Shown piece by piece: positions 16,852 to 45,743 of a stretch of 64,000 nt of DNA. The position numbers and the translations under genes were made by a program. Location: positions 116,220 through 180,219 of the forward strand of contig QQSK01000013.1 of the NCBI GenBank assembly GCA_003602415.1, in the 5' to 3' direction. Origin of the DNA: Candidatus Poseidoniales archaeon. Lineage in GTDB: Archaea; Thermoplasmatota; Poseidoniia; Poseidoniales; Poseidoniaceae. The notes below the pieces were generated by a model. It did no database searches and had not been told where the DNA came from. It worked only from the letters and a program-made list of their open reading frames with translations. The first letter of the stretch is position 1. Every line of letters starts with the position of its first letter.

Positions 16852-16915
16852 TTGGTACACATCTCCGTCGGTATTTTATGCCCGACTTGAGTGGGGAGGG
16901 GAGAGGGTGGCCCCT

Positions 16916-19900
16916 ATGAATGAAAATAAGAATGGAATAACCGCTTTGGTACTGACATGCTTGATGTTGATTACTCCGCTTGCAGGAGCAGCAGATGTCA
17001 CAACATTTAGCAACGGAGGAAGTGATGTTACTGTTGAAGTTCGAGACAGTGCAGAATACACAAATTACGAAGATGGAACAATTTCATTACCATCTGGGGA
17101 CACAGTTACCAGTGCTTCGATGAAGATATCAACCGATATGGCCACTCATGAAACTTTTACATCCATCAATTCTGAGACTGCTCAATATGTTTGGGATCCT
17201 GTATACAACAACCAACAAACCGAGTATTCCACGCTTACTGATTTCACATATCATGAAGATACTGTTCAACTGGTAAGCGGTGGTTTCTCAACCGACTTCG
17301 AAAGGTCAGAATCTTCATTCTTTGACCACACAGTGCCGCCTGTCTATGATGGCACAGGTTGGCAACATGGAACCCTTTCAGAAGCAACAGTCATCAATGA
17401 CAATTGTAACACTGGTAACGATTGTTGGGGTACAAACATGTACGACTGGGACAACGATTACACCAACGACGATAATGGCGGTGGATTCTCATACAGTCTG
17501 ATTACTCCAGAGATGGAAGTCGACCCAAGTTCCCACATTGCTCGCTTCTCCAGCTGGCACGGTATGCACTGGACACAAACCAATCCAGGTTCAAATCCAA
17601 CCAATACCTACTATGATTGTGGATATGTGATGGTAAGAAACTCATCATCACCAAACTTCCCTCCACCTGATATGGGTTGGAGTTACATTCCATTCGATGC
17701 AACAAATTCCACAGGAATCAGTTATGCAAATGGACTATATCCAATTGGTTCTGGAAATGGAAAGATTCAGAATTGTGATGGATTAACAGGTACTGATTAC
17801 GCAATTGGGGGAGAATCTACTCATCCAACTACCAACCCGTCCGGTTGGGCAACACTAGCTGTAAATCTGAACGAGCACATCCACAAGTATGTACAACTGA
17901 AATTCGTTATGAGCCACAACAATGGCGCAGGTACACCTGAAAATACCACAATGCCTGGTTGGTTCATCGATGACTTCAGAATCGGTGACCCTCTTCCACA
18001 ATCTGGTTCAATGACTGTGAAAGGTTTCACTCCTCAGCAATCACCTAACCCTGGTTTCCCAGACGGATACGGTGTTCTAACAATGGAGCAAGAAACAACT
18101 CCTACCAACTCTCTAACAGTTACTGCACTTCGTGGAGGAACTACTGATATCGTAGTCGACAAGTTTGGAGAATTGATGACAGGTCTTGAAGGTCCTATCG
18201 TTGAATTGTGGGATATTGATTCTGCAGACTACCCTGTTATCGATTTGAGATTCGACTTTGATACAGGACAATATCGGTTATCGACTGCAGTTCTTCACGG
18301 CATCAATGTAGGGACTCGTGTGGGTACGGGAATGAACGACACAAATGTCGTGCTAAGTCCAATGATCCAGGACGGAGTTTGGCAAACCTCTGGCGGAGGT
18401 CAGCCATTATTCTACACTCCAACATTAACTGATAATACGTTCACTCCAACGCTTTACAGTACTAAATTTTCACAACCAATTGTCGGTGTAACACCTGTTG
18501 TGGTTGACGATTGTACTGAATCTCCTGGTGTCGAATTGAACTTAAGAGACAATTCAATTCACAATTTGACCGTTGGACAGAAGTGGATTCCAGATGATCC
18601 AATCTTCGGTTTCTCTTCAGTTGTTTCTTATGCTAACCCTTGTGGATTGTCAGAACTTTGGTTTGACCTAGAATTCGGACACAGTGCGGAAGCGGTTGAA
18701 CTTGATATCGCAAACGATGGAGATATTGAATGGGCAATGAATGAGCCGGCATTCGGCTCGTTCGGCCGTCAAACAGTATTCTGGGCAGGTTACGCTGAAG
18801 GCGTCAATCATGCTATGCACGAATCAACGCTCACACTGAACACATTCGGTGAAGCAACAGGTGGTAGTTTCATGCTACCTATGGGCGCTGATGTTTCGAT
18901 TGCTGACATTATTCTATCAGATAACACAGCAGGAGATTTCGATTTGACATTAAGGTCTAGTGGCCAAGAAGTATCTCTTGGAACAATGGCTAATCAATCT
19001 TTGATATCCTATGAAACGGTGTTCCCAATGTTTGCATTTAACGATGCAATCAATTCACTGCTAACCAACCCATTACTTCAAGCGTCTCACATTGACAATT
19101 ATGGAAATGAATGGGCTACATTCCACTTCGATGTAGCAAACGAGAACGCTCCAAGTGGAACACAGGTTGTGTTTGGACACTTGGATATCGTTTACGAATG
19201 GGACACCACAATCGGTGGTTCAAGCAATTTCGACCGTGAATTGAACCAAGGTATTGCTCTTGGAAGCGGTTCCACTGTTGAGGTTCCACTTTCACTATCG
19301 GCAGGTAGTGGAGGCGCAGTTATGTTCTCTGACCTATCGGTCACAACATCTACAGGGTATGATTCATCACTTACTCTAACCGGTAGCCCAGAGGGATTGT
19401 ATCCAAATGGTGACATCGTAGAAGCTGTGTCTATTCACAGCGTAGATTCATCAACTGGAACTTCGTTTGCTGAATCAAGACTACGCATGGAATCTTCCAG
19501 TGGAGTTGTTGAATTAGCATTCTCCGAACTATCTCTGTTCACAGAAGCATATGACCCAGATAACCTAGTTACAATGGAATCATCCTCCTATACCGAGGTT
19601 GGAGATGAAATGCATGTCACATGGAGATTCAGAATTAACACCGCTTGGGAGGATACTGCTGAATTGAGATTGTATGCCAGTTTGATCGCAGCAAATGGCG
19701 TTAATGGAATGCCTGGAGCGGTTGTTCTAGCACCTAGTAATGGTAATGCAATTGAAAATGACGCTATGATCGCTTCTTTCGAATTGCAAAATGATGCGGG
19801 AGTAACACAGAACTTAGAATCAGCAAGTTCGAACCAGAACATCAATTTGGTTGGAAGCATTAGACTAGAAGGTCTAGATGTTGCACCAGACCCAACTTCT

Positions 19901-22750
19901 TACAATCTATCTTTGCAAAGATGGGACGTTCAAACAATCAATGGAAGCGTTGTATCTGAGTGGATCGAAGTATCCAACAGTACTGGAATCATCGGTGGTG
20001 ATTTCAATTGGGCTGTTAACCTTGGATTAACAGCAGCGGGTCAAGCAACTTACAGATTCATGATCGACGGATATGAAGGCGGAGACACACTTTGCCCACC
20101 ATCTCCAATCATATCTGATTCTGATTGTGCGATTCCATTCAATCTTTCAATCGATACATATTCTCCAACATTGGTGAACATTTCTGTTCTGAAAGCATCC
20201 AATTATGACCCGACAATCTGGACTAACTGGAGAGGCTTGGTAGATGACACATGGGTGCTTCCTAACGCTCAACAAAAGGTTAGAGTTCTAGCACAAGATA
20301 TTCCTTCGCCTCCAACAACACTGGATATGTATTACTGGGTTGAATACGACCATGATCAAGACCAGGATGGCATCGCTGACCCTGATGAATACGCATTGCT
20401 TATTCTGAACAGTGACGGTAATGCTCCAACAGCAAACTATTCTGGAACATTCAGTGATGATGCCAACAAGGGGCAAGACCCTCCTGGAAAAGTTAGTATC
20501 TACATCGAAGGTACTGACCTAGGAGGAAACCCAATCGATGGCGGTATGCCTGGATTTGAAGACGATTTGGTAACCTATGTTTCAATGGATGCAAAGACAC
20601 CGAACATCAGGAATTTCTTCATCGAAGACTCTGATGGAAACCGTCTGCACAATCCAAACGAAGGTGCTCCATTCTATCAGGGGCCTTGGAATATGACAAT
20701 GTACGCTGGCAATCAATATCACCTGATTGTTGAAGCTACAGACGAAAATGGTTGGAGAGATATCAACTACTTCGAAATCGATCTAGGTCCTGAAAATATG
20801 GTTGTCTACTATTCTCCTCGCAATGAAACAGCATGGTCAGATTCTGACGACATTCAGATTGTTCCAGCCGGTAATGATAGCGACGGACCTAAGGTTGTCA
20901 GAATGGATGGAGGACGACTAATCGATCCGTTCGAGGATGAATTCTATCTTGATTTACCTATTAGGATGAATTGGGATATTATCGGAATCGAGTCCACTAC
21001 CTATGTTCCTCAATTGAGAATCAAGGATATGGATAGAGATCCTTCTTTGATGAGTGAATCTGGTGGAAGGCACAAGCAACGCTGGGTCTACAGTGACGGT
21101 ATCCAGTTGGATTACAGAAATGGAATCAGTCCAACCTTCACAGATATGTCTGAGCCTTACTCACAGAATGTTGAGTTAGCGTTCGTATTCCCTGGTGACA
21201 CAATCTCCATGGAAGGCAAGTATGCGTACTTGGATGGAATCAACAATGGAGTATACGTTCTGCCTGAAGGTGAATTTACTCTTGAAGTGACCAGAGAAGC
21301 AGCAATGATGGATGGAAACAAGGGTTACCTTGCTTATCCAGCAGGTGGTGCAGATGGTTCTAGAACCGATGGCCCAACATTGCATACCATCGATGGTGGA
21401 GCATTCAACATCAACATTACAGCACCTCCACTATCAAATGAATATGTATACACTTTCAAACTGGTCAATCTACCAGATGGTGCTACTGACACTACTGCAA
21501 CCATCTGTGATGGTAACAATGCATTTGGATGCGCATCATTCAAGATTAAGGTAGATGGACAGAAGCCAGAAGTTGAGAAAGATTCCTGGTCTGTAAGTTC
21601 GGGAATTAACCAAGAAGTTCTTGGAATCACTCTACCTTCTTCTACCATGCATTGTGTGGATGTACAAGCAATAGTTGAAGAGAATGCAGCATTATTGGCC
21701 GGAGAAGTCGATTTAATGTGGTCATTCTACTCTGATGCAGATTCTAATCTAACATGGCCAGTTTACGGACAGAGATTTGGTGCAGATGCACAATCTCATC
21801 CAATGGACTTGAAGATTCAAGGTGGCGACTACTTGCTCAGTGCTGATTGTGTTGACCTTTGGCCAGACCCACAAGATCCAACTCAGGCACAAATTACTAC
21901 AGTCGATGTTGTCATGTGGATTGAAGGACGAGACTCAGCAGGATGGACTATCGATGGTGGCGGCCCTAACAGCGCAGGTGGAATCAGTTCTATCTGGTCA
22001 TCAGACCCAGTTCATAACTCGCAATACAGGCTCGTTCACGAACAAGCCAAGTTCAGTGTAATCGATGTCAGAATGACGCCGAAGAGTCCAGAAGTAGGGG
22101 ATGTTCCTGAACTAGAAATTTCACTTCAGAACATTGGAACCAAGGATGGAAACATTACACTTGAGGTGCAATCTGTCAAAGAAGGCGGATTCCCTACAAC
22201 AGAAATCACCTGGACTACAGATGAAATTGCTCAAGGAACAATGGCTAACGTATTCGTTACAGACTTAGAGATATTCGCAAACCCTACAAGTGGAATGTAT
22301 TTCCTAATTGTAGATGCAGAAACCAATGAAGTACTTTGGAATGGTTCAGAGAACTCTAAGTCATTCAATGTCGCTGAAGCAAGCGATGATGAAGGATTTT
22401 TGTCAGGTTCTGGAATGTTGATAGTCATTGGATTAGCAACTCTGATTCTAATTCTATTGGTCGCAGTTGTAATCTTGGCACGAAGAGATTCTGGTGATGG
22501 TACTTACGAATACGAGTATGAGTATGATGAGGAAGACAAGTCATACGCTGATATTCCGTCAGCCGGAACTGCAGCAGGGCCACCATCTTCAGGACCTCCA
22601 TCTGCGGGGCCTCCTCCTACGTCCGTGGACCCATTGATGGCAGCAGCATTAGCTGAATTCCCACAATGGGATGAGGCTACTATCCAAGGATACTTCGATC
22701 AGGGCTGGGATATAGACAGCCTACGTGATTGGGTTAACAGCAATCAGTGA
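16916..22750 (+). CDS. giant secreted, C-terminally anchored surface protein
   Basis: A 1944-residue protein. A signal peptide (NGITALVLTCLMLITPLAGA) is followed by an ectodomain of about 1800 residues made of beta-rich modules, with repeated Asn-, Asp- and Gly-rich strands. Near residue 1135 there is a calcium-type DHDQDQDGIADPDEYALL segment, and near residue 1720 a CARDB/Ig-like module (RMTPKSPEVGDVPELEISLQ) typical of archaeal cell-surface proteins. A membrane helix (MLIVIGLATLILILLVAVVI) lies at about 1838-1858, then an acidic Tyr/Glu strip, a Pro/Gly/Ser-rich linker and a 35-residue helical tail with WDEATIQGYFDQGWD. It is probably a structural or polymer-binding surface protein. ATG 16916 replaces the GTG 16907 frame start. 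Confidence 0.75.
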   Translation: MNENKNGITALVLTCLMLITPLAGAADVTTFSNGGSDVTVEVRDSAEYTNYEDGTISLPSGDTVTSASMKISTDMATHETFTSINSETAQYVWDPVYNNQQTEYSTLTDFTYHEDTVQLVSGGFSTDFERSESSFFDHTVPPVYDGTGWQHGTLSEATVINDNCNTGNDCWGTNMYDWDNDYTNDDNGGGFSYSLITPEMEVDPSSHIARFSSWHGMHWTQTNPGSNPTNTYYDCGYVMVRNSSSPNFPPPDMGWSYIPFDATNSTGISYANGLYPIGSGNGKIQNCDGLTGTDYAIGGESTHPTTNPSGWATLAVNLNEHIHKYVQLKFVMSHNNGAGTPENTTMPGWFIDDFRIGDPLPQSGSMTVKGFTPQQSPNPGFPDGYGVLTMEQETTPTNSLTVTALRGGTTDIVVDKFGELMTGLEGPIVELWDIDSADYPVIDLRFDFDTGQYRLSTAVLHGINVGTRVGTGMNDTNVVLSPMIQDGVWQTSGGGQPLFYTPTLTDNTFTPTLYSTKFSQPIVGVTPVVVDDCTESPGVELNLRDNSIHNLTVGQKWIPDDPIFGFSSVVSYANPCGLSELWFDLEFGHSAEAVELDIANDGDIEWAMNEPAFGSFGRQTVFWAGYAEGVNHAMHESTLTLNTFGEATGGSFMLPMGADVSIADIILSDNTAGDFDLTLRSSGQEVSLGTMANQSLISYETVFPMFAFNDAINSLLTNPLLQASHIDNYGNEWATFHFDVANENAPSGTQVVFGHLDIVYEWDTTIGGSSNFDRELNQGIALGSGSTVEVPLSLSAGSGGAVMFSDLSVTTSTGYDSSLTLTGSPEGLYPNGDIVEAVSIHSVDSSTGTSFAESRLRMESSSGVVELAFSELSLFTEAYDPDNLVTMESSSYTEVGDEMHVTWRFRINTAWEDTAELRLYASLIAANGVNGMPGAVVLAPSNGNAIENDAMIASFELQNDAGVTQNLESASSNQNINLVGSIRLEGLDVAPDPTSYNLSLQRWDVQTINGSVVSEWIEVSNSTGIIGGDFNWAVNLGLTAAGQATYRFMIDGYEGGDTLCPPSPIISDSDCAIPFNLSIDTYSPTLVNISVLKASNYDPTIWTNWRGLVDDTWVLPNAQQKVRVLAQDIPSPPTTLDMYYWVEYDHDQDQDGIADPDEYALLILNSDGNAPTANYSGTFSDDANKGQDPPGKVSIYIEGTDLGGNPIDGGMPGFEDDLVTYVSMDAKTPNIRNFFIEDSDGNRLHNPNEGAPFYQGPWNMTMYAGNQYHLIVEATDENGWRDINYFEIDLGPENMVVYYSPRNETAWSDSDDIQIVPAGNDSDGPKVVRMDGGRLIDPFEDEFYLDLPIRMNWDIIGIESTTYVPQLRIKDMDRDPSLMSESGGRHKQRWVYSDGIQLDYRNGISPTFTDMSEPYSQNVELAFVFPGDTISMEGKYAYLDGINNGVYVLPEGEFTLEVTREAAMMDGNKGYLAYPAGGADGSRTDGPTLHTIDGGAFNINITAPPLSNEYVYTFKLVNLPDGATDTTATICDGNNAFGCASFKIKVDGQKPEVEKDSWSVSSGINQEVLGITLPSSTMHCVDVQAIVEENAALLAGEVDLMWSFYSDADSNLTWPVYGQRFGADAQSHPMDLKIQGGDYLLSADCVDLWPDPQDPTQAQITTVDVVMWIEGRDSAGWTIDGGGPNSAGGISSIWSSDPVHNSQYRLVHEQAKFSVIDVRMTPKSPEVGDVPELEISLQNIGTKDGNITLEVQSVKEGGFPTTEITWTTDEIAQGTMANVFVTDLEIFANPTSGMYFLIVDAETNEVLWNGSENSKSFNVAEASDDEGFLSGSGMLIVIGLATLILILLVAVVILARRDSGDGTYEYEYEYDEEDKSYADIPSAGTAAGPPSSGPPSAGPPPTSVDPLMAAALAEFPQWDEATIQGYFDQGWDIDSLRDWVNSNQ

Positions 22751-22756
22751 TTCATC

Positions 22757-23554
22757 ATGAATCTTGATTGGGAAGACATACATTGGAAAGACCCAGATGG
22801 TGGCACAATTGTGCTGCATGGGATTCTTCCAACAGTAGTTCTGCCTAATGGCATGAGGCCCAGATTTAATTGGCATGGTTTAGGCATAATGGGCTCGAGT
22901 GAAGAGATTGAAGTTTGGACTGAAGAGGAAAAGGCAGAATTGAAAGATTCTGGAATAAATCTCGATAGTGCAATCCTGAATGGAGGGCTAGACAGTCTGT
23001 ATTTGGAAATGCTCACTTGGGTCGAAGGATTACAAGTGGGAAGATTCCCAGACCCAGAACCGCGCAGATTGCATAAGGCAGCAGTCAATCATGACCGTCC
23101 AGTTTTCTTTGCAGAACCGGATATGGATGATGAATCCTGGGCAACCTATCTCGAGAAAGAAGCGAAAGCAATGACTCGTCCTCGTAAATTATTGAAAATG
23201 ATATTTGTTTCAAGACGTTGGAGAAAGTGCATCAAGAAAATGCGTAAGCACGTAATCGAACAACCGGTCCGAGAGCCAGATGGATTACAAGCAGCTAGTG
23301 CTCTTGCAGCCACCTGGTGGACTCTAAACAGAGAAAACTCGGAACAGGATTTGAATGAGGAAAAAGACTTGAGATTCGCAGGACGCCTAAGAGGAGGATT
23401 GGCGAAATTGAGAGAGGATTTCAAAGATGATGCATTACTCTTAGTGCCAATACAACAGGCTGGTAGAAAATCTATGCTAGCCGCATTAGAAAAACTTCCA
23501 GAACCAGAGGAGAGTTCTTCACTTGCCTCCTCCTCGGATGGAGAGGAGGAGTGA
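22757..23554 (+). CDS. conserved hypothetical cytoplasmic protein
   Basis: A 265-residue protein without signal or membrane segment, not recognised. The N-terminal 60 residues are strand-rich (GTIVLHGILPTVVLPNG, WHGLGIMGSSEEIEVW); the middle is strongly basic around KLLKMIFVSRRWRKCIKKMRK; the C terminus is Ser/Glu-rich (SSSLASSSDGEEE). It starts 6 nt after the surface-protein stop, and its stop overlaps the next gene by a GTGA. The C-terminal codons form the left arm of a hairpin that covers the ribosome site of the TBP-like gene, implying translational coupling. Confidence 0.6.
   Translation: MNLDWEDIHWKDPDGGTIVLHGILPTVVLPNGMRPRFNWHGLGIMGSSEEIEVWTEEEKAELKDSGINLDSAILNGGLDSLYLEMLTWVEGLQVGRFPDPEPRRLHKAAVNHDRPVFFAEPDMDDESWATYLEKEAKAMTRPRKLLKMIFVSRRWRKCIKKMRKHVIEQPVREPDGLQAASALAATWWTLNRENSEQDLNEEKDLRFAGRLRGGLAKLREDFKDDALLLVPIQQAGRKSMLAALEKLPEPEESSSLASSSDGEEE
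23527..23551 (+). promoter_or_regulatory. 9-bp hairpin enclosing the ribosome site of the TBP-like gene
   Basis: CTCCTCCTC (23527-23535) is a perfect inverted repeat of GAGGAGGAG (23543-23551) with a GGATGGA loop. The right arm contains the GGAGG Shine-Dalgarno sequence for ATG 23557. In mRNA the stem would hide the site until ribosomes finishing the upstream gene melt it. Confidence 0.55.
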
Positions 23555-23556
23555 TT

Positions 23557-24096
23557 ATGAGCGGTTCAAATAAAATCGATGTTCGTGTCGATAACCTTCT
23601 GGTGAGATTCACCCCAACACCTGCTGTAGACCTTGAAGAAGCGGTTGAGAGACTTGGTGGAGTAGTCAATGGCGACGTCATTATCAAGATGTTAGATGCT
23701 CCTAGAGCGACTTTGATTATCGATGCTGAAGGTCGAATTATTGTCCATGGAACACATCGTATCGAAGCAGCCAGAGCAGCAGCAAAGGAAATGCTACTGC
23801 GAATGGGAAGAGATGATTCAGGACTGGTTACCGAATTAGGACCAATCGTAGCCTCATTTGATTTTGGCGAAACTGTACCAATTCACAATATTCGTTCAAA
23901 TTTAGGAAGCGGCACTTCCTCTGTTGATGAAAGACTTGGCTGCCTTAGAATAGAAGACTCTCGACATGATCTGGAATTATTGATTTGGCCAAATGGTCGC
24001 TGTGTAGCTCTGAATGCTCGACACCCTAACATGGTGGCAATGTCTGCAGTTCATTGGAAGTCGAAATTCGCTGATAAGAAATCTCTCAAGGCGTGA
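23557..24096 (+). CDS. TBP-like protein (divergent TATA-binding protein)
   Basis: A 179-residue protein of TBP length. The first half follows the TBP repeat well: KIDVRVDNLLVRFTPTPAVD, LEEAVERLGGVVNGDVIIKM, LDAPRATLIIDAEGRIIVHG, THRIEAARAAAKEML. The second half (LGPIVASFDFGETVPIHNIR, then LELLIWPNGRCVALNA and MSAVHWKSKF) keeps strand and helix spacing but has lost most conserved residues, including the canonical PGLVYR-like segment. It could be a second, specialised TBP that alters promoter choice, or a TBP-fold protein with another ligand. ATG 23557 has GGAGG 7 nt upstream. Confidence 0.6.
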   Translation: MSGSNKIDVRVDNLLVRFTPTPAVDLEEAVERLGGVVNGDVIIKMLDAPRATLIIDAEGRIIVHGTHRIEAARAAAKEMLLRMGRDDSGLVTELGPIVASFDFGETVPIHNIRSNLGSGTSSVDERLGCLRIEDSRHDLELLIWPNGRCVALNARHPNMVAMSAVHWKSKFADKKSLKA

Positions 24097-24944
24097 GTCA
24101 AATGGATTGGAATGGACCAATCCTCGATGACCATTTCCATCTAAACCGTAACGGTAGATTCTTGGATGCTGCTAGAGATTTTTTACGAGTAGGCGGTACG
24201 GATTTAGTACTGGTTCACTGTCCCGATTTCGCTTCACCTCCAGTCACAAGGCAAGGGCACAAGGATGCCTATGCAGATACGATTGCCATGGCTGAACAAG
24301 TTAGAGAATTAGGCCTAGGTGTACGAGTCATTTTGGGCCCTCATCCGGCAGCGTTTGCTCACCAATTCGAAACACTTGGAGATAGAGCTGAAGAAAATTA
24401 CTGGGATAGTATTGAGACGGCATTGGAGTTTGTTCACGAAGGTAAAGCACACGGTATTGGTGAAGTAGGAAGGCCCCACTGGAAGGTTACCGATGAGATT
24501 TGGAGTCGCTCAAACACTCTATTGTTAGAGACTATGCAACTGGCGGCTAAGGAAGGAATACCTCTGCAATTGCACGTTGAAGGCGAATCGGATGAAACCT
24601 ATGGTGATCTTGCTGTAATGGCAGACAAGGCAGGTCTAGCAAGAGAGAAACTGGTTAGGCATTATGCACCACCTAGAGTAGATGAATCCTATACTCATGG
24701 GCTAACTCCAAGTGTTCTGGCAGGTAGTGGTTCAATAGACCAATTAATGGCGACATTTGAATCATCATCACATGGTTTCATGCTTGAAACCGACTACATG
24801 GACGACCCCAGGAGGCCAGGTGCAGTTTTGGGGCCAAAGACAGTTCCTAAACGGACCAGACAATTACTGGCCGCAGGTTTAGACGAAGAGGTTCTGTATC
24901 TCTGTCACAGAGATTTACCAAACAGGATTTATGGGGAAATGTAA
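24093..24944 (+). CDS. archaeal TatD-related metal-dependent hydrolase
   Basis: A 283-residue amidohydrolase-fold protein. The metal ligands of the TatD/COG1099 type are visible: DDHFHLN at the N terminus (HxH), GIGEVGRPHW (Glu), LQLHVEG (His), and a C-terminal His/Asp region (LVRHYAPP, LETDYMDD). The archaeal branch is annotated as predicted hydrolase, possibly nuclease, with no proven substrate. Its GTG start overlaps the TBP-like stop (GTGA); ATG 24102 is an alternative that begins MDWNGPI. It is co-transcribed with the two preceding genes by spacing. Confidence 0.75.
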   Translation: MSQMDWNGPILDDHFHLNRNGRFLDAARDFLRVGGTDLVLVHCPDFASPPVTRQGHKDAYADTIAMAEQVRELGLGVRVILGPHPAAFAHQFETLGDRAEENYWDSIETALEFVHEGKAHGIGEVGRPHWKVTDEIWSRSNTLLLETMQLAAKEGIPLQLHVEGESDETYGDLAVMADKAGLAREKLVRHYAPPRVDESYTHGLTPSVLAGSGSIDQLMATFESSSHGFMLETDYMDDPRRPGAVLGPKTVPKRTRQLLAAGLDEEVLYLCHRDLPNRIYGEM

Positions 24945-26229: not shown

Positions 26230-26250
26230 CACCTACCCTAAGGGTAGGTG
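26230..26250. promoter_or_regulatory. perfect 10-bp-arm palindrome before fabI
   Basis: CACCTACCCT-A-AGGGTAGGTG is a perfect inverted repeat ending 6 nt before the fabI start codon. The right arm includes the AGGTG that would serve as ribosome site. As DNA it has the form of a dimeric repressor operator (compare fatty-acid regulators in bacteria); as RNA it would occlude translation initiation. Confidence 0.55.
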
Positions 26251-26256
26251 CTAATC

Positions 26257-27051
26257 ATGCTTGGTTTACAAGGTAAAGTTGCATTCGTTTTTGGCGTGGC
26301 CAGTGAAGACTCAATTGCATGGGCTATTTGCAAAAGTTTAGCCGATGCAGGAGTCACTCTGTATCTGGGATATCAGAAGAGATTCATGTCTCGTGTATTC
26401 CAATTGAAAGACAAACTGCCAGCCATTGCGGGATTCTATCCATTGGATGTTGCAAACGATGCGGACACCAAAGAATTCTTCGATGCATTCGGCAAAGAGA
26501 ATCCCGGCATGAAAGCTGACATCTTGATTCATGCTATCGGTTTTGCACCACGAGAATGTTTTGATAGGCCGATATTATTCGTTGATGATGAAAGTATCAA
26601 TACTGCATACACAATTTCTGCAAACTCATTGCAACGTTGCCTAAAATTCGCATTACCTTATCTAAATCCTGGCTCATCAACAATCACTCTAACCTATGCG
26701 GCTTCTACAAGGCACGTCCCTTCCTATGGAATCATGAGTATGGCAAAAGCAGCACTAGAATGCTGGACTAGAGAATTAGCTTGTCATCTTGGGCCTGAAG
26801 GACACCGAGTCAATGCGATATCTAGTGGGCCGATTAGAACGATTGCTGCTAGCGGTATTCCTGGGTTTGACAACATCCTTGACCATGTTGCTGCCAATTC
26901 GCCACTGCGTCGAAATGTTACACAAACAGATGTTGCAGGATGCACAACATGGTTGGCAAGCCCTCTGTCATCTGGTGTGACTGGACAATGTATACACGTC
27001 GATGCTGGATATTCGATCACTATGGTTCCTCCAAGCATTATGGGTGAGTGA
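26257..27051 (+). CDS. fabI: FabI-type enoyl-ACP/CoA reductase
   Basis: A 264-residue short-chain dehydrogenase-like reductase of the FabI subfamily, which reduces trans-2-enoyl thioesters with NAD(P)H. The N-terminal FGVASEDSIAWAICKSLADAG matches the FabI cofactor loop (G-x5-SIAW), and the catalytic pair is Tyr157 and Lys164 in SYGIMSMAKAA (Y-x6-K as in FabI). The region HVAANSPLRRNVT and a terminal GQCIHVDAGYSI are also typical. It is the first gene of the megasynthase operon, 4 nt upstream of that gene, and supplies the enoyl reduction that the megasynthase lacks. Most archaea do not have FabI, so bacterial origin is likely. Confidence 0.9.
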   Translation: MLGLQGKVAFVFGVASEDSIAWAICKSLADAGVTLYLGYQKRFMSRVFQLKDKLPAIAGFYPLDVANDADTKEFFDAFGKENPGMKADILIHAIGFAPRECFDRPILFVDDESINTAYTISANSLQRCLKFALPYLNPGSSTITLTYAASTRHVPSYGIMSMAKAALECWTRELACHLGPEGHRVNAISSGPIRTIAASGIPGFDNILDHVAANSPLRRNVTQTDVAGCTTWLASPLSSGVTGQCIHVDAGYSITMVPPSIMGE

Positions 27052-27055
27052 AAAA

Positions 27056-30000
27056 ATGACAATCACTACGACAAACGGTAAGCAAGTCGATGGCCTAAAT
27101 CAGGCTCCTTTCGAGCCTGTTGCGGTTATTGGAATGGCTGCATTGATGCCAGATGCCACTTCAATGGAAGAGTTTTGGCAGAATATTATCGATGCGCATG
27201 TCTCTATCAAAGAGGTATCCAAAGATAGATGGGACCCAGATATCTATTGGGAGAATGGGGCTCCAGGCAACGTTACCGAAGGCAAGACATATTCTAAAAT
27301 CGGAGGATTCGTAGAAGACTATGAGTTCGATTGGCGAAGGTGGAGGCAACCTCCAGGTACTCTTCCACAAATCGACCCATGTCAACTTTGGGCGGTAACC
27401 GTATCAGCAGATGCAATCGATGATGCAGGATACGGAGAAGGTGGGAAAACACTGGACAGAGCAAGGACTGGAGTCATTTTCGCTAATGCTTTAGGGGGGG
27501 AAAATCGCTCAGAATCAAACATCAGAATTTTTAGTTCTGAAATGAGGAAGATTGCTCTAGATAACGGAGCAACTCCAGAACAAGCAGATGCGATGGTAGA
27601 GAAAATGTGCGAGGGCAAACCTCGTATCGATGAAGATACAATGCCAGGAGAATTGGCTAATGTAGTCAGTGGGAGAGTTGCAAATCTTCTAGATCTGCAA
27701 GGTCCAAATTATTCCACAGATGCGGCTTGTGCTTCGTCTATGGCTGCACTTCTAGACGCATGTAGACTTCTACAAACACGCCAGGTAGACACAATGCTAG
27801 CAGGTGCAACAGACCGTTGCATGGAAGCTCCGACCTACGCTAAGTTTAGCGCAATCGGCGCACTTTCTCCAAGCCACTCTACTCCTTTCGATGCCCGTGC
27901 TAATGGATTCGTTATGGGTGAAGGAGCAGGTGTTCTTCTTCTCAAGAGATTGTCTGATGCAATCGATGCCGGTGACGACATCAAAGCAGTAATTCGCGGA
28001 GTAGGTGGTTCTTCGGATGGTAGAGGGAAAGGGATAACCGCTCCTAGTCAAAGAGGGCAAGTCCAAGCGGTAAGTCGAGCATATTCACAAGCGGGTTACG
28101 AGCCTTCAACAGTAGAGTTAGTCGAAGCGCATGGTACTTCAACCAAGGTTGGTGATGCAACGGAATTGTCGACATTGTCTCTATTGTGGACAGGCTTGGA
28201 TGGGGGAGACCACATCGCAGTGGGTTCAGTCAAGAGTCAAATTGGGCATCTGAAAGCGGCTGCAGGAATTGCTGGAATCATGAAAGCATGTAATTCAGTA
28301 TATCACAAGACAATACCTCCTAGTGCAGGGTTCCAAACTCCAAACCCAACGGTTGAATGGGACGAGATACCATTTTTCGTACCAACAGAAGCTAGAGACT
28401 GGCCAGAGCCAGAATCTCACCCACGTAGGGCAGGAATCTCAGCATTCGGCTTCGGTGGAACAAATTTCCACGTAGCAGTTGAGGGCTATGACCTCGAATA
28501 TCACTCCAAATTAGTAGAACACTGGAATGGGAGATGGGAAGCATATGCAGGAATCGAATCTTCTTCATCTGAAGCCAAACCAACTATGACGCACGAGGAG
28601 TTGAAGGCTGTTGAAGGCGGATTACTACTATTGTCTGGTGACTCGATAGATTCTCTCAAGTCAAAATTGAGTGCACTTACATTCTCTGGTCCAAACTTTG
28701 ACGATGATCCACGAGGCATGCGTCTATCATTTACTCTAGACTCTCACTGGTCTTTCGATGTTAAAGACACAGTCAGAATGGCTTTGTCAGCCACCAGTTG
28801 GGCTGAGTTTAACAAACGTAAGGACTTGGCAATCAAGGCTATGGATGACAAGGAGAAATGGGGCTTTTTGATGAGTCAAGGCATCATGATTAGCGATACT
28901 CCTGCACTGCCTAAACAAGCAAAAGTCGCACACATGTATCCTGGTCAAGGAAGCCAATATGTTGGTATGACCAACGACTTACATTCTCGTTTCAGTGGCG
29001 TAGGCGATGTTTGGGACAAGGCTGATGTTACCATGGTCGATGTTTTGGATGGAGAGACATTGTCTTCTTTCGTACTTCGTGATGGATTAACCGCTGAAGA
29101 AATGAAAGAGGCTGAGCACAAACTCAAGCAGACTGAATATACTCAACCCGCAATGTTGACAGCAGATTTAGCAATTGAAGCGGCACTGAATGCTCACGGA
29201 CATAAGCCAGATATGGTGGCTGGGCACAGTTTAGGAGAATATGCAGCACTAATGAGTGCAGGTATTCTTGACATGGATGGTGCATTGAGAGCGGCAGCAG
29301 CTCGTGGTACTGAAATGGGTAGTGTCGAAATTGATGACAAAGGCTTGATGGCTAGTGTAACCGCACCTTACGATAGAATCGCAGAGATTATCGAAGAAGT
29401 GGACGGTTATGTCATTGCAGCAAATAAAAACTCACCGAAGATGACGGTAATCGCTGGAGAAACCGAACCCGTAAAGCAAGCAATGTCACGCTTTGAGGCT
29501 GAAGGTTTCCAGTGTGTTGCATTAGCAACAAGCCACGCATTCCATTCTCGAATCGTTGCACCTGCAAACGAACCACTTCGCAGATTCTTAGAAGGGCTGG
29601 ACATTAGATGGCCAAAAATCCCGATCACCAGCAACGTTGACGGCGGGTGGTATCCAATGGATGATGGCGGCGATTCAAAGGCAGCAATACTATCCAAACT
29701 TGCACCTCAAATGGCATCAAGTGTTGAATGGACTTCGCAGATAAATTCGATGTATGATGCAGGAGCACGATTATTCCTAGAAGTAGGACCTAAGCGTGCA
29801 CTCACAGTATTCGCATCACAAATCCTTGAAGGCAAACAAGCCCTTCCAATAATGACAAATCACCCTAAGGCCGGAGGAATTGCAACGTTCCTTACCGCTT
29901 TAGGAACGCTAGCTCTTGCTGGAAGAGTTCCCGAATGGCCTGGCCCTAACAGCGCTCACTTAACTCCAGCATTCCGTGCAGGACCTATCGAGGCAGCAGG

Positions 30001-33000
30001 CGGAGCCAAGCAGCCTGCAACTCCTCTGAAGGAGAGAAGCAGGCCATTGCCATCAAAGGGTGGCCAAACAGTTACTCAAACCGTCATCCAATCGAGTGAA
30101 ACATACGTTGATCCCGATGCAGCAAAGAAGGCATTAGTGGGCGAGTTAATCGCTGCACAGACTGGATATCCTGCAAAATTCTGTCAAGGTAATGTCGACA
30201 TGAGAGCGGTTCTTGGTATGAGCGATGAGCAAATCCAAGTCGTAGTATCTTCAGTTCATGCAAGGTGTAGTACTGACCCCGATTGGGACATTACGATAGC
30301 AAAAACTCCTGGAGATATCACTAGATGGATAACTTCAGCACCAGCAATTGGCTCCAAGTCCAAGTCGATGAAACACGATGATAGAGATGACGACCCGTTC
30401 GTAATCACGGGTATTTCAATGGGCCTTCCTGGTGGAGAAAGAGTGTTTGATGAAGGTAATTTCGAGAAATTGGTGAGGGGTGAAACTTGTATCACCGAAG
30501 TGACCGACGAATACAAACAACGCCTTCTAGACAAAAATATCGTACGTCTAATAAAAGGAAGAGACGGCAGTGTCGGAATGGATGCTGCTACTGAATTTGG
30601 AGATATACCTCAATTAGCTGGAGTGAAATCCGCTTTCGATCCTACAGAAGAGTTCGGAATCGATGCCAAAGTCGCAGCAGCTTGGGATATTGCAACTCAG
30701 TTATCTTGTGCGGCTGGATTAATCGCATTGAAAGATGCAGGTATTCCATTAACTCCTGTGGAACAGGTTGGTAAAGGTGGATTGAGATTGATTCGTTCTT
30801 GGCAAATGCCATCCGCTTACAGAGATAGAACTGGAATAGTATTCGCATCTTGCTTCGCAGGCCATCAAATGGCTGCAAGGCATGCTAAGGTCAATGGAGA
30901 CGATGGTGAGGGAAGATTCGACAGAAGATATCTTTTCCAAATATTGAATATGGGCCATTCACAATTCGCTCAGCATGTTGGAATTAGAGGTCCGAATACC
31001 ACAATTAACCTAGCATGTGCTTCTGCAACTGCAGCATTCGGCGTCGCAGAAGATTGGCTTGCCAACGATAGATGTGACCGTGTAGTCATAATCTCTGCAG
31101 ATGATGTAACGGGAGACGACCTATGGGAATGGATTGGTTCAGGTTTCGCTGCCAGCGGAGCTGCAGCAACCAATAACTCGGTTGAAGAAACCGCATTACC
31201 TTTCGACAAGAGGCGCAATGGTTTGATTCTGGGAATGGGTGCAGCAGCATTCGTAGTCGAACGAAAATCAGAATCCGACGCTAGAGGAGTTCAGCCGATG
31301 GCTGAGTTATTGGGAACTAGAATTGCAAATTCCGCATTCCATGGAACTCGATTGGACGTTGAGCATGTCGCTAGTACCGTTGATGATTTCGTTTCTGAAA
31401 TGGAAGAAAGATGGGGATTAGACAGACACCAAATGGCTCCTGATACCGTGTTCTTTTCCCATGAAACATATACTCCTGCTCGTGGAGGTTCAGCTCAGGC
31501 TGAAGTCAAGGCCCTCAGAGACACATTTGGTGCTAGTACGGATTCAATAGTCATTGCAAACACCAAAGGTTTCACAGGACATCCAATGGGTGTAGGAATT
31601 GAAGATGCTGCCATGTTCTATGGTTTAATGACCGGCAGAATACCGCCAATCGCCAATCACAAAGAAACAGATCCAGAACTTGGAAATCTGAAATTATCCA
31701 AGGGGGGAGATTATTCCAATCTGAAGTATGGAATGAGATTTGCAGCAGGGTTTGGAAGTCAAATCGGTTTGTCATTAGTTCGAAAGTGTGAATTCACAGG
31801 AGATAGAATCAACAAACAAAAACTGCTGACCTGGAACCAATCTCAGGCAGGAACTACCAATTTAGAATTAAGAGTATTACAAAACAAACTGGTTGCATAT
31901 GTTGATGCAGACAACAATTTACACGGCGGAATTCTAGGAGATGAATACGCAGTACCACGAGAAATAGATAGCATCGAGGCTCCAGTAATCGAATCTAGTC
32001 CTGCTCCAAAACCAGAACCTGTGGCTCCAGCACCTGCTGAACCAACTCCTGTTGCGTCGGCGCCTTCAGGTGATACGACTTCTATCGTAATCGAAGTCGT
32101 AGTCAAGCACACAGGATATCCTGCTGACTTTGTAGAGTTAGACCAAGACCTAGAAGGTCAACTTGGAATAGATACTGTCAAGCAAGCAGAAATAATGGCA
32201 GATATCAGAGAAAAATTCGGTTTACCTATCGATGAAGACTTCGTACTTTCAGATTATCCAACACTGAATCATATGATCGCCTACATCCACAAGATGCAGG
32301 GAGGAAGTCCTGCTCCTGTTGCACCAAAAACAGTAACTGAAGTTTCAACTCCAGAACCAGTTCCAAAAGCAGAACCAGCACCTGCGCCAGCACCAGTTGC
32401 TAGCGAGCAATCTTCAGCAGTAGATATTCAGCCGAAATTAATCGGAGTAGTGGTCAAGCACACAGGCTATCCCGAAGATTTCATCGAAATGGACCAAGAC
32501 CTTGAAGGAGAATTGGGAATCGATACGGTCAAGCAAGCCGAAATCATGGGTGATGTAAGAGAAATTTTCTCATTACCTATCGATGAAGACTTCGTTCTAT
32601 CCGAGCACCCTACTCTGAACCACTTCGTAGCCTACATTCAGAAGATGACAGGCGGAAACGCTCCAGTGCCTACTCCAGCACCGGTCGAGACGACAAGTCC
32701 AGCCGCTCCAACGCCTGTTGAAGTTCCAGCAACTCCAACGGTTTCAGCAGATAGCGGAGACATTCAGCCGAAATTAATCGGTGTAGTGGTCAAGCATACA
32801 GGCTATCCTGAAGATTTCATCGAAATGGACCAAGACCTAGAAGGAGAATTAGGAATTGATACGGTTAAACAAGCCGAAATCATGGGTGACGTAAGAGAAA
32901 TTTTCTCATTACCAGTGGATGAAGACTTCGTTCTATCCGATCACCCTACTCTGAATCACTTCGTAGCCTATATTCAGAGAATGACAGGCGGAAGCACTCC

Positions 33001-36000
33001 GGCATCTACTCCAGCACCAGCGCCGGTTGAAGTGAAAAGTCCAGTTGCTCCAACACCTGTTGAAGCTCCAACAACTCCAACGGTTTCAGCAGATAGCGGA
33101 GAAATACAAGTGAAATTAATCGGTGTAGTGGTCAAGCATACAGGCTACCCAGACGACTTCATTGAAATGGACCAAGACCTAGAAGGCGAACTAGGAATCG
33201 ATACGGTCAAGCAAGCCGAAATCATGGGTGACGTAAGAGAAATTTTCTCATTACCAGTGGATGAAGACTTCGTTCTATCCGACCACCCTACTCTGAACCA
33301 CTTCGTAGCCTACATTCAGAAGATGAAAGGAGGAGGTGCACCAGCGCCAGCGCCAGTTGCGAAACCAGTTCCACAACCAGTTGCACCTCAGCCAGTGCCT
33401 TCAACACCTGTTAGCAATTCCAAGCCAATAGCCGAATCTACCACAAGACGATGGCAGGTAGAGGTCGAACCATGCCCTGCAGTAGCCGAAGGTCTTCCAA
33501 TTGGAGGAACAATCGTGCTAACACAGGATAGCTGGGGCGTAGCAGATGCTTTGGCAGATAGGCTAGTCGAAAAGGGCCTATCTGTAGCGAAGATTGGATT
33601 CGAATTCGGTGCTAAATCAGTTACTGAACAAGAGGAGTTGTCGGGTCATACCTTCAGAGCAGACCCAGGTAGTGAAGAGCAAATCGCCGAGGTTTGCTCT
33701 AGAATTTCAGGTGTTGCTGGAATCATCCACTTAGCACCACTTTCCCTAACCGGAAGTTCTTGGGAAGCCGATGGTCCATCAAATCAGGTGAATCTTGCAG
33801 CACAATCTTGGTTTGGATTACTGAAAGGCTTAGATTCACAATTAGGAGTAATCTCCTCAGGCATTGTTGGTAGTGTAACCGCTTTGGATGGAAGACATGG
33901 AAATAGGGGCGAGCGATTCAATTCACTTGCTTGCGCAGCAAGTGGAGTGACCAAGTCCTATGCCTTTGAGAGGGAAAACCTCAGATGTCGTGCACTTGAT
34001 TTACACCCTGAATTGATTATTGATGCAGCATCAGCAGCAGAAGTAATCGACAACGATTTATTCACCGCAGGCGGAGAAATCGAAATAGGAATCGACAGAG
34101 ATGGCCGAAGATGGACGATGGTCTGTTTCGCAGAAGATGTCGTTGAAGATGTTGAACCATTACAATCCGATGATTTGTGGTTGGTCAGTGGTGGTGGCTC
34201 TGGAGTAACAGCAGCATCAATAATCGGTGTATCAAGCGCTAGTAACGGCGCTGGTGCGACATTCCTACTACTTGGTAGAAGCAAACTCGTTGAAGAAACA
34301 TCGGGATGGTTGGATTGGAGCGATGACCAACTCAATCAGAGGAAGATGGAACTTAGAGAATCATTGATCGCCGAATCTGAATCTGGAAAAGTGACAATGG
34401 TGGAATGGAATAATGCTTGGACTAAATTAACTCGAAGTATGGATATTTATCGAACGATAAGCGATATCGAAGCAAGTGGAAACAATGCAGAGTACCACTC
34501 AGCAGATGTTACCGATTCTGAAGCGATTAAGTCCGCAGTCAATGGAAGAGATGTAACCGGTATCGTTCACGGTGCAGGTCTTGAAGAATCTAAACTGGTA
34601 GCAGACAAAGCATGGAACACATTCGACTTGATTGTTAGAGTCAAGGTCGATGGATGGAAAGCATTAGCCTCTGCTGCAGGAGATTCTCTACGGTTTGCCT
34701 GTGCGTTCACAAGCGTAGCGGGTAGATTTGGAAATCGTGGTCAAACAGATTATGCAGCGGCCAACTCAATTTTGGACGCAGAAATGGCTCGCATGACAGC
34801 TAACTCTGAATGCAGAGCGGTTGCTATTGGATGGACAGGATGGAGAGATGTTGGAATGGCAACTCGCGGCTCGATAGAAGCGGTGTTTGAGTCATCTGGA
34901 ATTGAGACATTGTCTGTTGAAGATGGTGTCGAGATATTCGTCAAAGAAGCATTAGCAGGCGGCAAAAGAAGAGTTCTAGGCTGCGGCTCATTAGGAAATA
35001 TGGACCTATTCGATTCATTTAGAGAAGCGCCTTTGAAATTACCTGCAGAAATGGCTGCATCGATTGCAGACCCTCGCAGATTCCCTCTTATCGACAAACT
35101 CTTGTCTATTGAGGAAGGCGAATCCTTAGTATCTCAGTGTACTCTTTCAATGCAAGAACATCCATTCTTGGTAGATCATGCAATCGATGGAGTTCCTTAC
35201 CACCCAGGCGTAATGGCGTTGGAGATGTTTGCAGAAAACTCTCTACTGCTGATGCCAAGTCATTGTTTAGCAGGTTTCGAAGAAGTCACATTTGGTTTAC
35301 CTGTCAAGATAATGAAAGGCGATATGACTGTTAGAGTTGAAGCAACATTATCCAGAACCGATGGTGACTTGTCTTGGGTAAAATGCCGCTTAGTTTCAGA
35401 TTTGACTAATTCAAAGGGTGAAGTATTCGGTGAACCAAGATTACATCACGAAGCGATGGTACGACTGGTTGCAACATCAGATGACCTTCGCCCATTCTTA
35501 CAAAATGAAGTTGACTCCTTACCAGCAATAGGAACTCCACCTCATGGTGATTTACTACATCACTCTAGTTTCATCTATCTGAGATATTTCCACGGCCCAA
35601 GGTTCCAATCTCATGGCGGAGTTCTACGTGGCGTTGAAAACGGCGTAGACGGTATTGCACTGATGCGCCACCAACTGCCTGCAACCGACCAATTTGCATT
35701 GGAAAGCGATGGTGAAGAAGTTCTGTTGGATGCTCTACCAATGCTAATCGAAGCAGGTTTCCAAAATGCTGGATTGGCAGCCATGGAAAGCGATGGATTC
35801 TCGAGTCTACCTATTGGAATCGAGTGGACTACAATGTTGCGAGTTCCCGATGCAAACGAATCTTTGCGAATGCGTTCAGTCAAAGTTGCTACCGAGGATG
35901 CGGGAATAACTGTACACGATGTGGTAATCGTTGGAGAAGATGATGCTCCTGTTCTATCGCTCAAGGGTCTACGACTCAAAGCGATGGGCCAAGTGCCTGA

Positions 36001-43877: not shown

Positions 43878-45743
43878 ATGGGAGCAGGTAATCCACGCGC
43901 GGCACAATACAATCACCTTTCTCCAGAGGAATTAAACGACTCCAAAATCGAGGTTCTAGGCAAACAAGTTTGGAGAGTTATTCCATACGGATTACGCTAC
44001 AAAAAGAGAGCACTAACCGGTATTGCGGCTAATGGAATGGCAAGGTTCGCCGATTTGCTTCCATTCGTATTCATTGGATTTGCCGTGGATTATTACGCAG
44101 GTAATGATACCGAGGGATTCTTTGGCGGAATGAGAGATTTCTTGGATAATTCATTGTTCCCCCTACTAACAGATAATTTGGCGGTGGGTTATGGAATTCT
44201 GATTTTCCTAGGTTTCGCCAGCCTTGCAGTCTTCCAAGGAATCAGTGAATACTGTTGGCAGACACTGGGTTACAAAGTTCAGCACGACTTACGTCTCGAT
44301 GCTACACGCTCGTTAATCGATATGGAGGCATCATACTACGATCTTCGCCAAACAGGGCAATTGATGAGCGTATTATCAGCTGATGTCAATCAATTGGAGG
44401 ACGTGATTAGCGATGCATCAACATCGATAATTCGGATTGTTGTTACCTTTGGAACAGCGTTCTTGATATTGGTTCTAATGAGTTGGAAATTAGCAGCTGT
44501 ATTGTTTGCTCCTTTACTTCTCATCATTCCGTTAGTATATCTCTTCTCAACTAGAGTTCAAAGGAAATATCGCCAACAAAGGGAATCTACTGGCGATATT
44601 ACTGCGGTTTTAGAGAATGTAATTTCGGGTATTGCTGTTGTTCAAGCATACAATGCTCAGGAATGGGAATCCAATAGAGTTGACAGTGAGTCTACCTCTT
44701 ACAGAGACCAAGCAATCGGCGCAAGCCGTGATAGAAACCGTTTCCTTCCTGGACTATACGCAATTGCAGGTATTGCATTCGGATTGCTGGTTACAGTAGG
44801 TGGATATCTTACCAAATCTGGAGACATAACCACTGGACAATTGGTTACTTTCTTACTAATTTCAACAAGGATGACCATGCCTATGTTCATCTTTGGAATG
44901 CTGGTAAATCAGTTGCAAAAGGGCGAGGCTAGTGCTCGCAGAGTATTCGCTTTGGTTGATTTAGAGCCAACAATTACCGACAAACCAGATGCTAAGGAAT
45001 TAGAAGGTTCAATCACTTCTGTGGAATTCGAAAATGTTCATTTCACATATCCAGGGACTTCAACCAAAGTACTAGCGGGTATCTCATTCAAAGTTAGTGC
45101 GGGCCAATTTTTGGGAGTAATGGGTCACACAGGTGCAGGAAAAACCACCATTCTGAAACTCTTGATGCGTTATTATGAGCCTCAGGAAGGTAGAGTTCTA
45201 GTAAACGGAATCGATGTTCAAGATTTGACACTTGATTCAGTAAGAGCAGGCATGGGATTCGTGAGTCAAGAGCCATTCCTTTTCTTTGGTTCGCTCAAAC
45301 AAAATGTAGCCTACAACCGTGATGCTGACGATGAAGAGATTATGAAAGCATTAGAATTAGCAGGTGCTGCTGAATTCGTCAAAGAATTTGAAGACGGCTT
45401 GGATACCATGGTTGGTGACAGAGGAACAATGTTATCTGGTGGACAAAGAGCCCGTGTTTCTCTAGCAAGGGCACTTCTAAAGAATCCAAGTCTATTGGTT
45501 CTAGATGAAGCATCCAGTGCATTAGATGCTGAAACAGAGAAGAGAATCCAAGAGAATTTGATTGCCAGTGGTGGAGATAGAACCACCATCGCAGTTGCTC
45601 ACAGACTGTCTACAATTCGCAACGCTGAAGAGATTATTTCCATGGTTGATGGAGGAATCGTTGAGCGTGGAACTCATGAGGAATTGATTGCCAATAACGG
45701 TGTCTACGCTAGCCAATGGCAGATACAAACCGGTGAAAGATGA
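43878..45743 (+). CDS. ABC exporter, fused membrane and ATPase domains
   Basis: A 621-residue half-transporter of the type IV (MsbA/multidrug) fold. Residues about 45-360 hold six membrane helices (ALTGIAANGMARFADLLPFV, GILIFLGFASLAVFQ, IIRIVVTFGTAFLILVLMSW and others) with an ELARG-like coupling region; residues 370-615 are the ATPase with Walker A GHTGAGKTT, Q-loop FVSQEP, signature LSGGQRARVSLARALL, Walker B LLVLDEASSALD and the switch His in VAHRLST. It works as a dimer; the substrate could be lipid, peptide or drug. The gene is divergent from the protease gene. Confidence 0.9.
   Translation: MGAGNPRAAQYNHLSPEELNDSKIEVLGKQVWRVIPYGLRYKKRALTGIAANGMARFADLLPFVFIGFAVDYYAGNDTEGFFGGMRDFLDNSLFPLLTDNLAVGYGILIFLGFASLAVFQGISEYCWQTLGYKVQHDLRLDATRSLIDMEASYYDLRQTGQLMSVLSADVNQLEDVISDASTSIIRIVVTFGTAFLILVLMSWKLAAVLFAPLLLIIPLVYLFSTRVQRKYRQQRESTGDITAVLENVISGIAVVQAYNAQEWESNRVDSESTSYRDQAIGASRDRNRFLPGLYAIAGIAFGLLVTVGGYLTKSGDITTGQLVTFLLISTRMTMPMFIFGMLVNQLQKGEASARRVFALVDLEPTITDKPDAKELEGSITSVEFENVHFTYPGTSTKVLAGISFKVSAGQFLGVMGHTGAGKTTILKLLMRYYEPQEGRVLVNGIDVQDLTLDSVRAGMGFVSQEPFLFFGSLKQNVAYNRDADDEEIMKALELAGAAEFVKEFEDGLDTMVGDRGTMLSGGQRARVSLARALLKNPSLLVLDEASSALDAETEKRIQENLIASGGDRTTIAVAHRLSTIRNAEEIISMVDGGIVERGTHEELIANNGVYASQWQIQTGER

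What the first reader, a model, noticed from the sequence alone, without database searches (positions are those of the whole stretch)
23557..24096. TBP-fold protein with a decayed second repeat
The first repeat follows the TBP pattern, the second keeps only spacing. TBP binds DNA with both repeats, so one-sided decay suggests altered DNA contact, heterodimer use, or a new function.
Basis: partly seen in the sequence, partly recalled or inferred. Interest (0 to 1): 0.5.

Follow-up and report, generated by a model that had tools for sequence, protein, structure and literature searches.

The report
Displaced TBP with rebuilt DNA-binding face
Marine Group II archaea (Poseidoniales) all carry, besides a normal TATA-binding protein, a second and heavily altered copy at the old TBP gene locus; it keeps the saddle fold but has lost nearly all residues that grip TATA DNA, so it has probably been recruited to a new, still unknown job.

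Summary
The ORF is real: an intact 179-aa protein with a complete two-repeat TBP fold (Pfam TBP 28.2 bits; AlphaFold pLDDT 90; TM about 0.8 to archaeal TBP). It is not the genome's TBP: a canonical one lies on another contig.

The claimed asymmetry is wrong. Repeat 2 matches TBP better than repeat 1. Both repeats have lost DNA contacts: of eight landmark residues (Asn, Phe, Phe, Thr in each repeat) only the repeat-1 Asn is kept, with Trp or Phe at one Phe position. In repeat 1 the DNA-facing positions carry an invariant polar set (Arg17, Thr52, Asp/Glu56, His64; 103 of 103 homologues), so this is remodelling, not decay.

The gene is single-copy in 22 of 22 genera of the order, absent from the rest of the phylum sampled, and under strong purifying selection. 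It overlaps or abuts an equally order-specific 265-aa gene and a TatD-type hydrolase gene wherever the contig extends far enough. In other Thermoplasmatota the ordinary tbp gene often sits next to the same tatD. The altered gene therefore occupies the ancestral tbp locus, and the TBP role is held by a copy elsewhere. The most likely role is a TATA-independent TBP-fold adaptor working with the 265-aa protein. Function is untested.

The parts
23557..24096 (+). TBP-like protein (here TBPL), 179 aa; complete two-repeat TBP fold; an alternative GTG start lies at 23551
   Evidence: Pfam TBP 28.2 bits; hhalign to canonical TBPs E 3e-10; model pLDDT 90.1; Foldseek TM 0.82 to 1mp9
23578..23811 (+). repeat 1 of TBPL (residues 8-85); both intercalating Phe lost (Gly39, Asp56), Thr replaced by His64, Asn13 kept; invariant polar set Arg17/Thr52/Asp56/His64 at DNA-facing positions
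   Evidence: alignment to canonical TBP; residue counts over 103 homologues
23833..24072 (+). repeat 2 of TBPL (residues 93-172); best Pfam TBP stretch; Asn replaced by Pro96, Phe pair by Leu127 and Trp144, Thr by Leu152
22757..23554 (+). 265-aa protein K, order-specific, no known family; stop codon ends 2 bp before the TBPL ATG (overlaps the alternative GTG start)
   Evidence: present in sampled Poseidoniales and no other Thermoplasmatota; no Pfam match; model pLDDT 88.9 without a convincing PDB match
24093..24944 (+). TatD-type metal-dependent hydrolase, 4-bp overlap with TBPL; likely metal-site residues H14, H16, E124, H161, H190, D234 conserved
   Evidence: Pfam TatD_DNase 78.5 bits; conserved columns over 180 sequences; orthologue next to tbp in other Thermoplasmatota

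Best explanation
TBPL is the occupant of the ancestral tbp-tatD locus. In the stem lineage of Poseidoniales the job of TATA-binding protein passed to a tbp gene elsewhere, and the gene left at the old locus was remodelled and fixed in the whole order. Shown: homology and full TBP fold, a separate canonical TBP, loss of the TATA-intercalation residues, conservation, purifying selection, ancestral locus, strict linkage to gene K. Inferred: TBPL does not bend TATA DNA; its saddle, polar in repeat 1 and with Leu127/Trp144 in repeat 2, binds a different partner; that partner includes protein K, made from the adjacent gene; and the complex acts as a TATA-independent auxiliary factor near the transcription machinery, comparable in logic to metazoan TLF/TRF2.
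For: Canonical TBP elsewhere in the genome. All eight landmark residues (N, F, F, T in each repeat) are invariant in the canonical TBPs compared; TBPL keeps one, plus a Trp at a Phe position. Arg17, Thr52 and His64 are 103/103, and residue 56 is Asp or Glu in 103/103. One copy in 228 of 244 genomes of the order, 35 of 35 of the most complete, 22 of 22 genera. dN about 0.07-0.18 while synonymous sites are near saturation. tbp lies at most 145 bp upstream of the tatD orthologue, same strand, in 10 genomes of 7 other families (coordinates). The trio is contiguous in 108 of 111 loci, the other three cut by contig ends. K has the same order-wide and order-only distribution.
Against: No direct evidence for a K-TBPL contact, for a transcription role, or for loss of DNA binding. 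Repeat 2 keeps bulky hydrophobic residues where Phe wedges sit and an acidic residue near the TFB-contact stirrup (Asp124 in 99/103), so some DNA or TFB binding remains possible. The tree cannot place TBPL: its stem is 3.2 changes per column, so in-place descent from the old tbp rests on gene order, not on the tree. Adjacency to tatD is inherited and says nothing about function.
Confidence: 0.45

Rival explanations
1. TBPL is an alternative TBP that still binds promoter DNA, through repeat 2 and a partner TFB, but with a different site preference, giving a second promoter class.
For: Repeat 2 keeps Leu127 and Trp144 (or Phe in the second family) at the wedge positions. Multiple TBP/TFB combinations occur in other archaea (PMC7289017). 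The genome has a second, divergent TFB, present in most genomes of the order.
Against: Both wedge Phe of repeat 1 are replaced, one by an acidic residue in every sequence. Additional TFBs also occur in the sister order, which lacks TBPL, so a second TFB is not specifically tied to TBPL. A factor that binds DNA through repeat 2 would be expected to conserve repeat 2, yet repeat 1 is the better conserved within the family (63% against 53%).
Confidence: 0.2
2. TBPL is a negative regulator that competes with canonical TBP for TFB or forms an inactive complex with it.
For: The fold is retained while DNA contacts are lost, as expected for a decoy. Asp124 and often Glu125 are kept near the TFB-contact stirrup. 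Metazoan TLF can sequester TFIIA (PMC3142196).
Against: The most invariant residues lie on the DNA-facing side of repeat 1, not on the TFB-facing stirrup. The strict partner gene K is unexplained.
Confidence: 0.15
3. [quoted passage not shown]
For: Genes overlap and are adjacent wherever the contig allows. The hydrolase keeps its likely metal site. The RNase H3 N-domain shows that a TBP-like lobe can bind substrate for a nuclease (PMC4132731).
Against: The same tatD orthologue lies next to ordinary tbp in some other Thermoplasmatota and exists apart from it in most others, so the adjacency is inherited and the enzyme does not need TBPL.
Confidence: 0.1
4. A decaying, non-functional tbp duplicate.
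For: The sequence is very divergent from TBP (16% identity in the profile alignment).
Against: Present and open in nearly all genomes, low dN, invariant residues.
Confidence: 0.02

Closest known systems
Archaeal TATA-binding protein (PF00352)
   Same: Two-repeat saddle fold over the full length; each half matches its cognate TBP repeat best in the medians
   Different: Seven of eight landmark DNA contacts changed (one of them conservatively, Phe to Trp or Phe); the stretch leading to the repeat-1 stirrup Phe position is about 3 residues shorter; a separate canonical TBP is present
Metazoan TLF / TRF2 / TBPL1
   Same: A divergent, faster-evolving TBP paralogue beside a canonical TBP, with a changed wedge residue (PMC7221094); reported not to bind TATA (PMC3142196)
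   Different: No orthology shown; TBPL is far more divergent from TBP and in an archaeon
Multiple TBPs of haloarchaea and other archaea
   Same: More than one TBP-family gene per genome (PMC7289017)
   Different: Those are used in TBP-TFB combinations at promoters; whether they keep all canonical contacts was not tested here, TBPL does not
RNase H3 N-terminal TBP-like domain
   Same: TBP-type lobe that uses other residues than the canonical Phe pair (PMC4132731)
   Different: Single lobe fused to a nuclease; TBPL has two lobes and is a separate protein
Second TBP of the sister order (same class)
   Same: Divergent second TBP with the repeat-1 stirrup Phe lost
   Different: Keeps the other Phe wedges, not next to tatD, and not closer to TBPL than canonical TBP is

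Membership tests
TBP family (homology and fold) | Sequence profile match to PF00352 above the curated cut-off | tested here: met
   28.2 bits against 22.9; 24 of 24 family members match at E <= 0.01
TBP family (homology and fold) | Two tandem repeats forming one saddle | tested here: met
   model and Foldseek; hhalign over 172 columns
Canonical TATA-binding protein | Two intercalating Phe pairs | tested here: not met
   Gly/Ser39, Asp/Glu56, Leu127, Trp/Phe144
Canonical TATA-binding protein | Central Asn and Thr of each repeat | tested here: not met
   Asn13 kept in 96 of 103; His64, Pro96 and a variable residue 152 elsewhere
Canonical TATA-binding protein | Being the genome's TBP | tested here: not met
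   canonical TBP at G000:C20:58404-59030
Canonical TATA-binding protein | Binds and bends TATA DNA | not testable with these tools
   needs binding assays
TLF/TRF2-like (works like) | TBP-fold factor that no longer binds TATA but contacts the initiation machinery | not testable with these tools
   only the loss of wedge residues was seen
RNase H3-type substrate-binding domain | Fused to or acting with a nuclease | tested here: inconclusive
   separate gene next to a TatD-type hydrolase, but the adjacency is ancestral

The most novel reading that the evidence does not exclude
A whole order of abundant marine archaea moved its TATA-binding function to another locus and turned the old tbp gene into a new, order-wide factor whose saddle carries a conserved Arg/Thr/Asp/His site instead of the minor-groove surface, working with a partner protein (K) of unknown family.
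Probability: 0.35. Interest if true: 0.75.

Novelty: new variant of a known kind. Interest (0 to 1): 0.55.

Why it matters
TBP is among the most conserved proteins of archaea and eukaryotes, and its DNA face is almost invariant. An order-wide paralogue in which that face has been rebuilt and then frozen gives a clean natural experiment on what else a TBP saddle can do, and may reveal an unrecognised general factor in Marine Group II archaea. The gene-order evidence also suggests a case in which an essential function moved away from its ancestral locus.

Tried and rejected
One-sided decay of repeat 2: rejected by half-by-half scoring. Pseudogene: rejected by conservation and dN/dS. The only TBP of the genome: rejected. 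Viral or mobile origin: no relative in IMG/VR with the single-sequence query, no PHROGs or PADLOC match. Functional link to TatD from adjacency alone: dropped after the ancestral tbp-tatD pair was found. Orthology with the sister order's second TBP: not supported by profile comparison and not resolvable by tree. Origin from the order's own canonical TBP: the profile score to it (37) is lower than to other Thermoplasmatota TBPs (61), but profile depth and the insert in the canonical protein confound this. Identity of K: no Pfam match, weak PDB Foldseek match only (TM at most 0.44 to a ciliate complex IV subunit), none convincing in BFVD, none by sequence in the PDB. No upstream gene resembling K was found beside tbp in other families. 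Literature: no paper found on a TBP paralogue in Poseidoniales; a main paper on the evolution of the superfamily (PMC3597702) is not held.

Full report
What is there. The window belongs to a Marine Group II (Candidatus Poseidoniales) genome; close relatives in the named collection are Poseidoniales or Poseidoniaceae MAGs and single-cell genomes. The ORF at 23557-24096 (+) encodes 179 aa. It matches Pfam TBP above the curated cut-off, as do all 24 homologues in alignment A1 at E <= 0.01. A profile of the family aligns to canonical TBPs over both repeats with E 3e-10. The AlphaFold model, made from the window protein and 40 relatives, has mean pLDDT 90.1 and the strand/helix order of two TBP repeats. 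Its best PDB matches are all TBPs, TM mostly 0.7-0.8.

Is the second repeat the decayed one? No. HMMs were built separately from repeat 1 and repeat 2 of canonical TBPs and each half of the family was scored. Each half prefers its cognate repeat in the medians (first half 15.5 bits to repeat 1 and 12.3 to repeat 2; second half 17.4 to repeat 2 and 8.3 to repeat 1), which fits descent from a complete TBP. In the window protein the second half scores higher, 18.2 against 13.0 bits. Within the family, repeat 1 is the better conserved of the two (63% against 53% mean pairwise identity).

DNA-contact residues. In the canonical TBPs compared, the Asn of strand 1, the two intercalating Phe and the Thr of the last strand are invariant in both repeats. 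The roles of the Phe pairs are described in PMC3142196; the roles of Asn and Thr rest on general knowledge of TBP-DNA structures. Mapped by the profile alignment and counted over 103 homologues: repeat 1 has Asn13 (96/103), Gly or Ser39 for the first Phe (102/103), Asp or Glu56 for the second (103/103), His64 for Thr (103/103). Repeat 2 has Pro96 for Asn (96/103), Leu127 for the first Phe (98/103), Trp or Phe144 for the second, and a variable residue at 152. Arg17 and Thr52, which lie at alternating, DNA-facing positions of their strands by analogy with TBP, are 103/103. So the DNA-facing side of repeat 1 carries an invariant polar set Arg17/Thr52/Asp56/His64, where TBP has a largely hydrophobic minor-groove surface. 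The 103 sequences are mostly from one of the two families of the order (10 from the second).

Not the only TBP. The genome has one canonical TBP at G000:C20:58404-59030, 209 aa, next to a mevalonate kinase-like gene. Nearly all Poseidoniales genomes sampled have this canonical gene, with 90% mean identity among 31 sequences. TBPL evolves faster than that but is constrained: dN 0.07-0.18 at near-saturated synonymous sites within the genus.

Distribution. A1 finds the family in 228 of 244 genomes of the order, 35 of 35 of the most complete and 22 of 22 genera, one copy each. In the rest of the phylum the hits are far weaker (mostly E 1e-4 to 3e-9, one at 1e-12), and those read were TBPs or other TBP paralogues. 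No hit occurs in the sister order of the class.

Neighbours. At 111 loci with flanks, the order K - TBPL - TatD on one strand holds in 108, and the three exceptions end at a contig edge. Median gaps are -4 bp on the K side and 4 bp on the TatD side. Outside this trio the neighbours differ between groups of genera. K (22757-23554) has no Pfam family, a confident model (pLDDT 88.9) and no convincing structural match. It was found in 64 genomes, all of them Poseidoniales, and in none of the other Thermoplasmatota searched. The TatD-type hydrolase keeps its likely metal-binding residues and is widespread in the phylum (107 of 116 genomes).

Ancestral locus. Comparing the positions of tatD and TBP in the same genomes, tbp lies at most 145 bp upstream of tatD on the same strand in G326, G310, G277, G274, G261, G331, G340, G281, G299 and G267, which belong to seven families outside the order. 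In G267 the adjacent TBP is itself divergent. Looser pairs (0.4-5 kb) occur in G258, G270, G278, G286 and G291. In most other genomes of the phylum the two genes are apart. Several adjacent pairs were re-read in DNA. The tbp-tatD pair is therefore most simply read as old in the phylum. In Poseidoniales the partner of tatD is TBPL, and the canonical TBP is elsewhere. The simplest reading is that TBPL is the in-place descendant of the old tbp. The trees cannot confirm this because TBPL has a very long stem. Profile scores put TBPL nearer to other Thermoplasmatota TBPs (61) than to the order's own canonical TBP (37) or to the sister order's second TBP (46), with caveats about profile depth.

How it may work. 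Losing both Phe wedges of repeat 1, one to a conserved acid, makes TBP-style bending of TATA DNA unlikely (inference). The retained fold, the invariant polar face and the strict partner K suggest a saddle that holds another ligand or protein. The closest functional precedent is metazoan TLF/TRF2, a TBP paralogue reported not to bind TATA but to contact other initiation factors (PMC3142196; for the changed wedge residue in TBPL1 see PMC7221094). Alternatives are a second promoter-specific TBP, a competitor of TBP, or a substrate-binding subunit for TatD. The last is weakened because the adjacency is inherited. A second divergent TFB exists in the genome and widely in the order, but additional TFBs also occur in the sister order without TBPL.

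Verdict. The finding is real and more interesting than described, but for a different reason: not a half-decayed TBP, but an order-wide remodelled TBP at the ancestral tbp locus. Function remains untested.

Noticed in passing
L285-L292 (sister order, e.g. L285:2416-2967): Genomes of the sister order carry their own second TBP, about 183 aa, with the repeat-1 stirrup Phe lost; not next to tatD and not clearly related to TBPL.
   Followed up: partly
L243:482-2179 (G132:C152): A canonical TBP with an insert of several hundred residues between its two repeats in one open frame; no Pfam match for the insert; could be an insertion or an assembly chimera.
   Followed up: partly
L284 (G345), L101 (G363), and G337, G339: Tandem pairs of a canonical and a divergent TBP gene in other Thermoplasmatota families.
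   Followed up: partly
L108:1836-2483 (G267): A divergent TBP next to tatD, with canonical TBPs elsewhere in the genome: a possible independent parallel to Poseidoniales.
   Followed up: partly
L001:1126-1755 and alignment A5: The canonical Poseidoniales TBP has about 20-26 extra residues at the start of repeat 2 compared with other Thermoplasmatota.
   Followed up: no
L223:1444-2466: A second, divergent TFB with a zinc ribbon; a divergent second TFB is found in most Poseidoniales genomes sampled.
   Followed up: partly
window 26248-36028: A short-chain reductase-like gene followed by a 3008-aa multidomain polyketide/fatty-acid synthase with repeated carrier domains, between tatD and an ABC transporter gene (43878-45743); in part of the second family the ABC transporter gene follows tatD closely.
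   Followed up: no
window 16907-22750: A 1947-aa secreted or surface-type protein directly upstream of K, with relatives at the same place in most of the first family.
   Followed up: no
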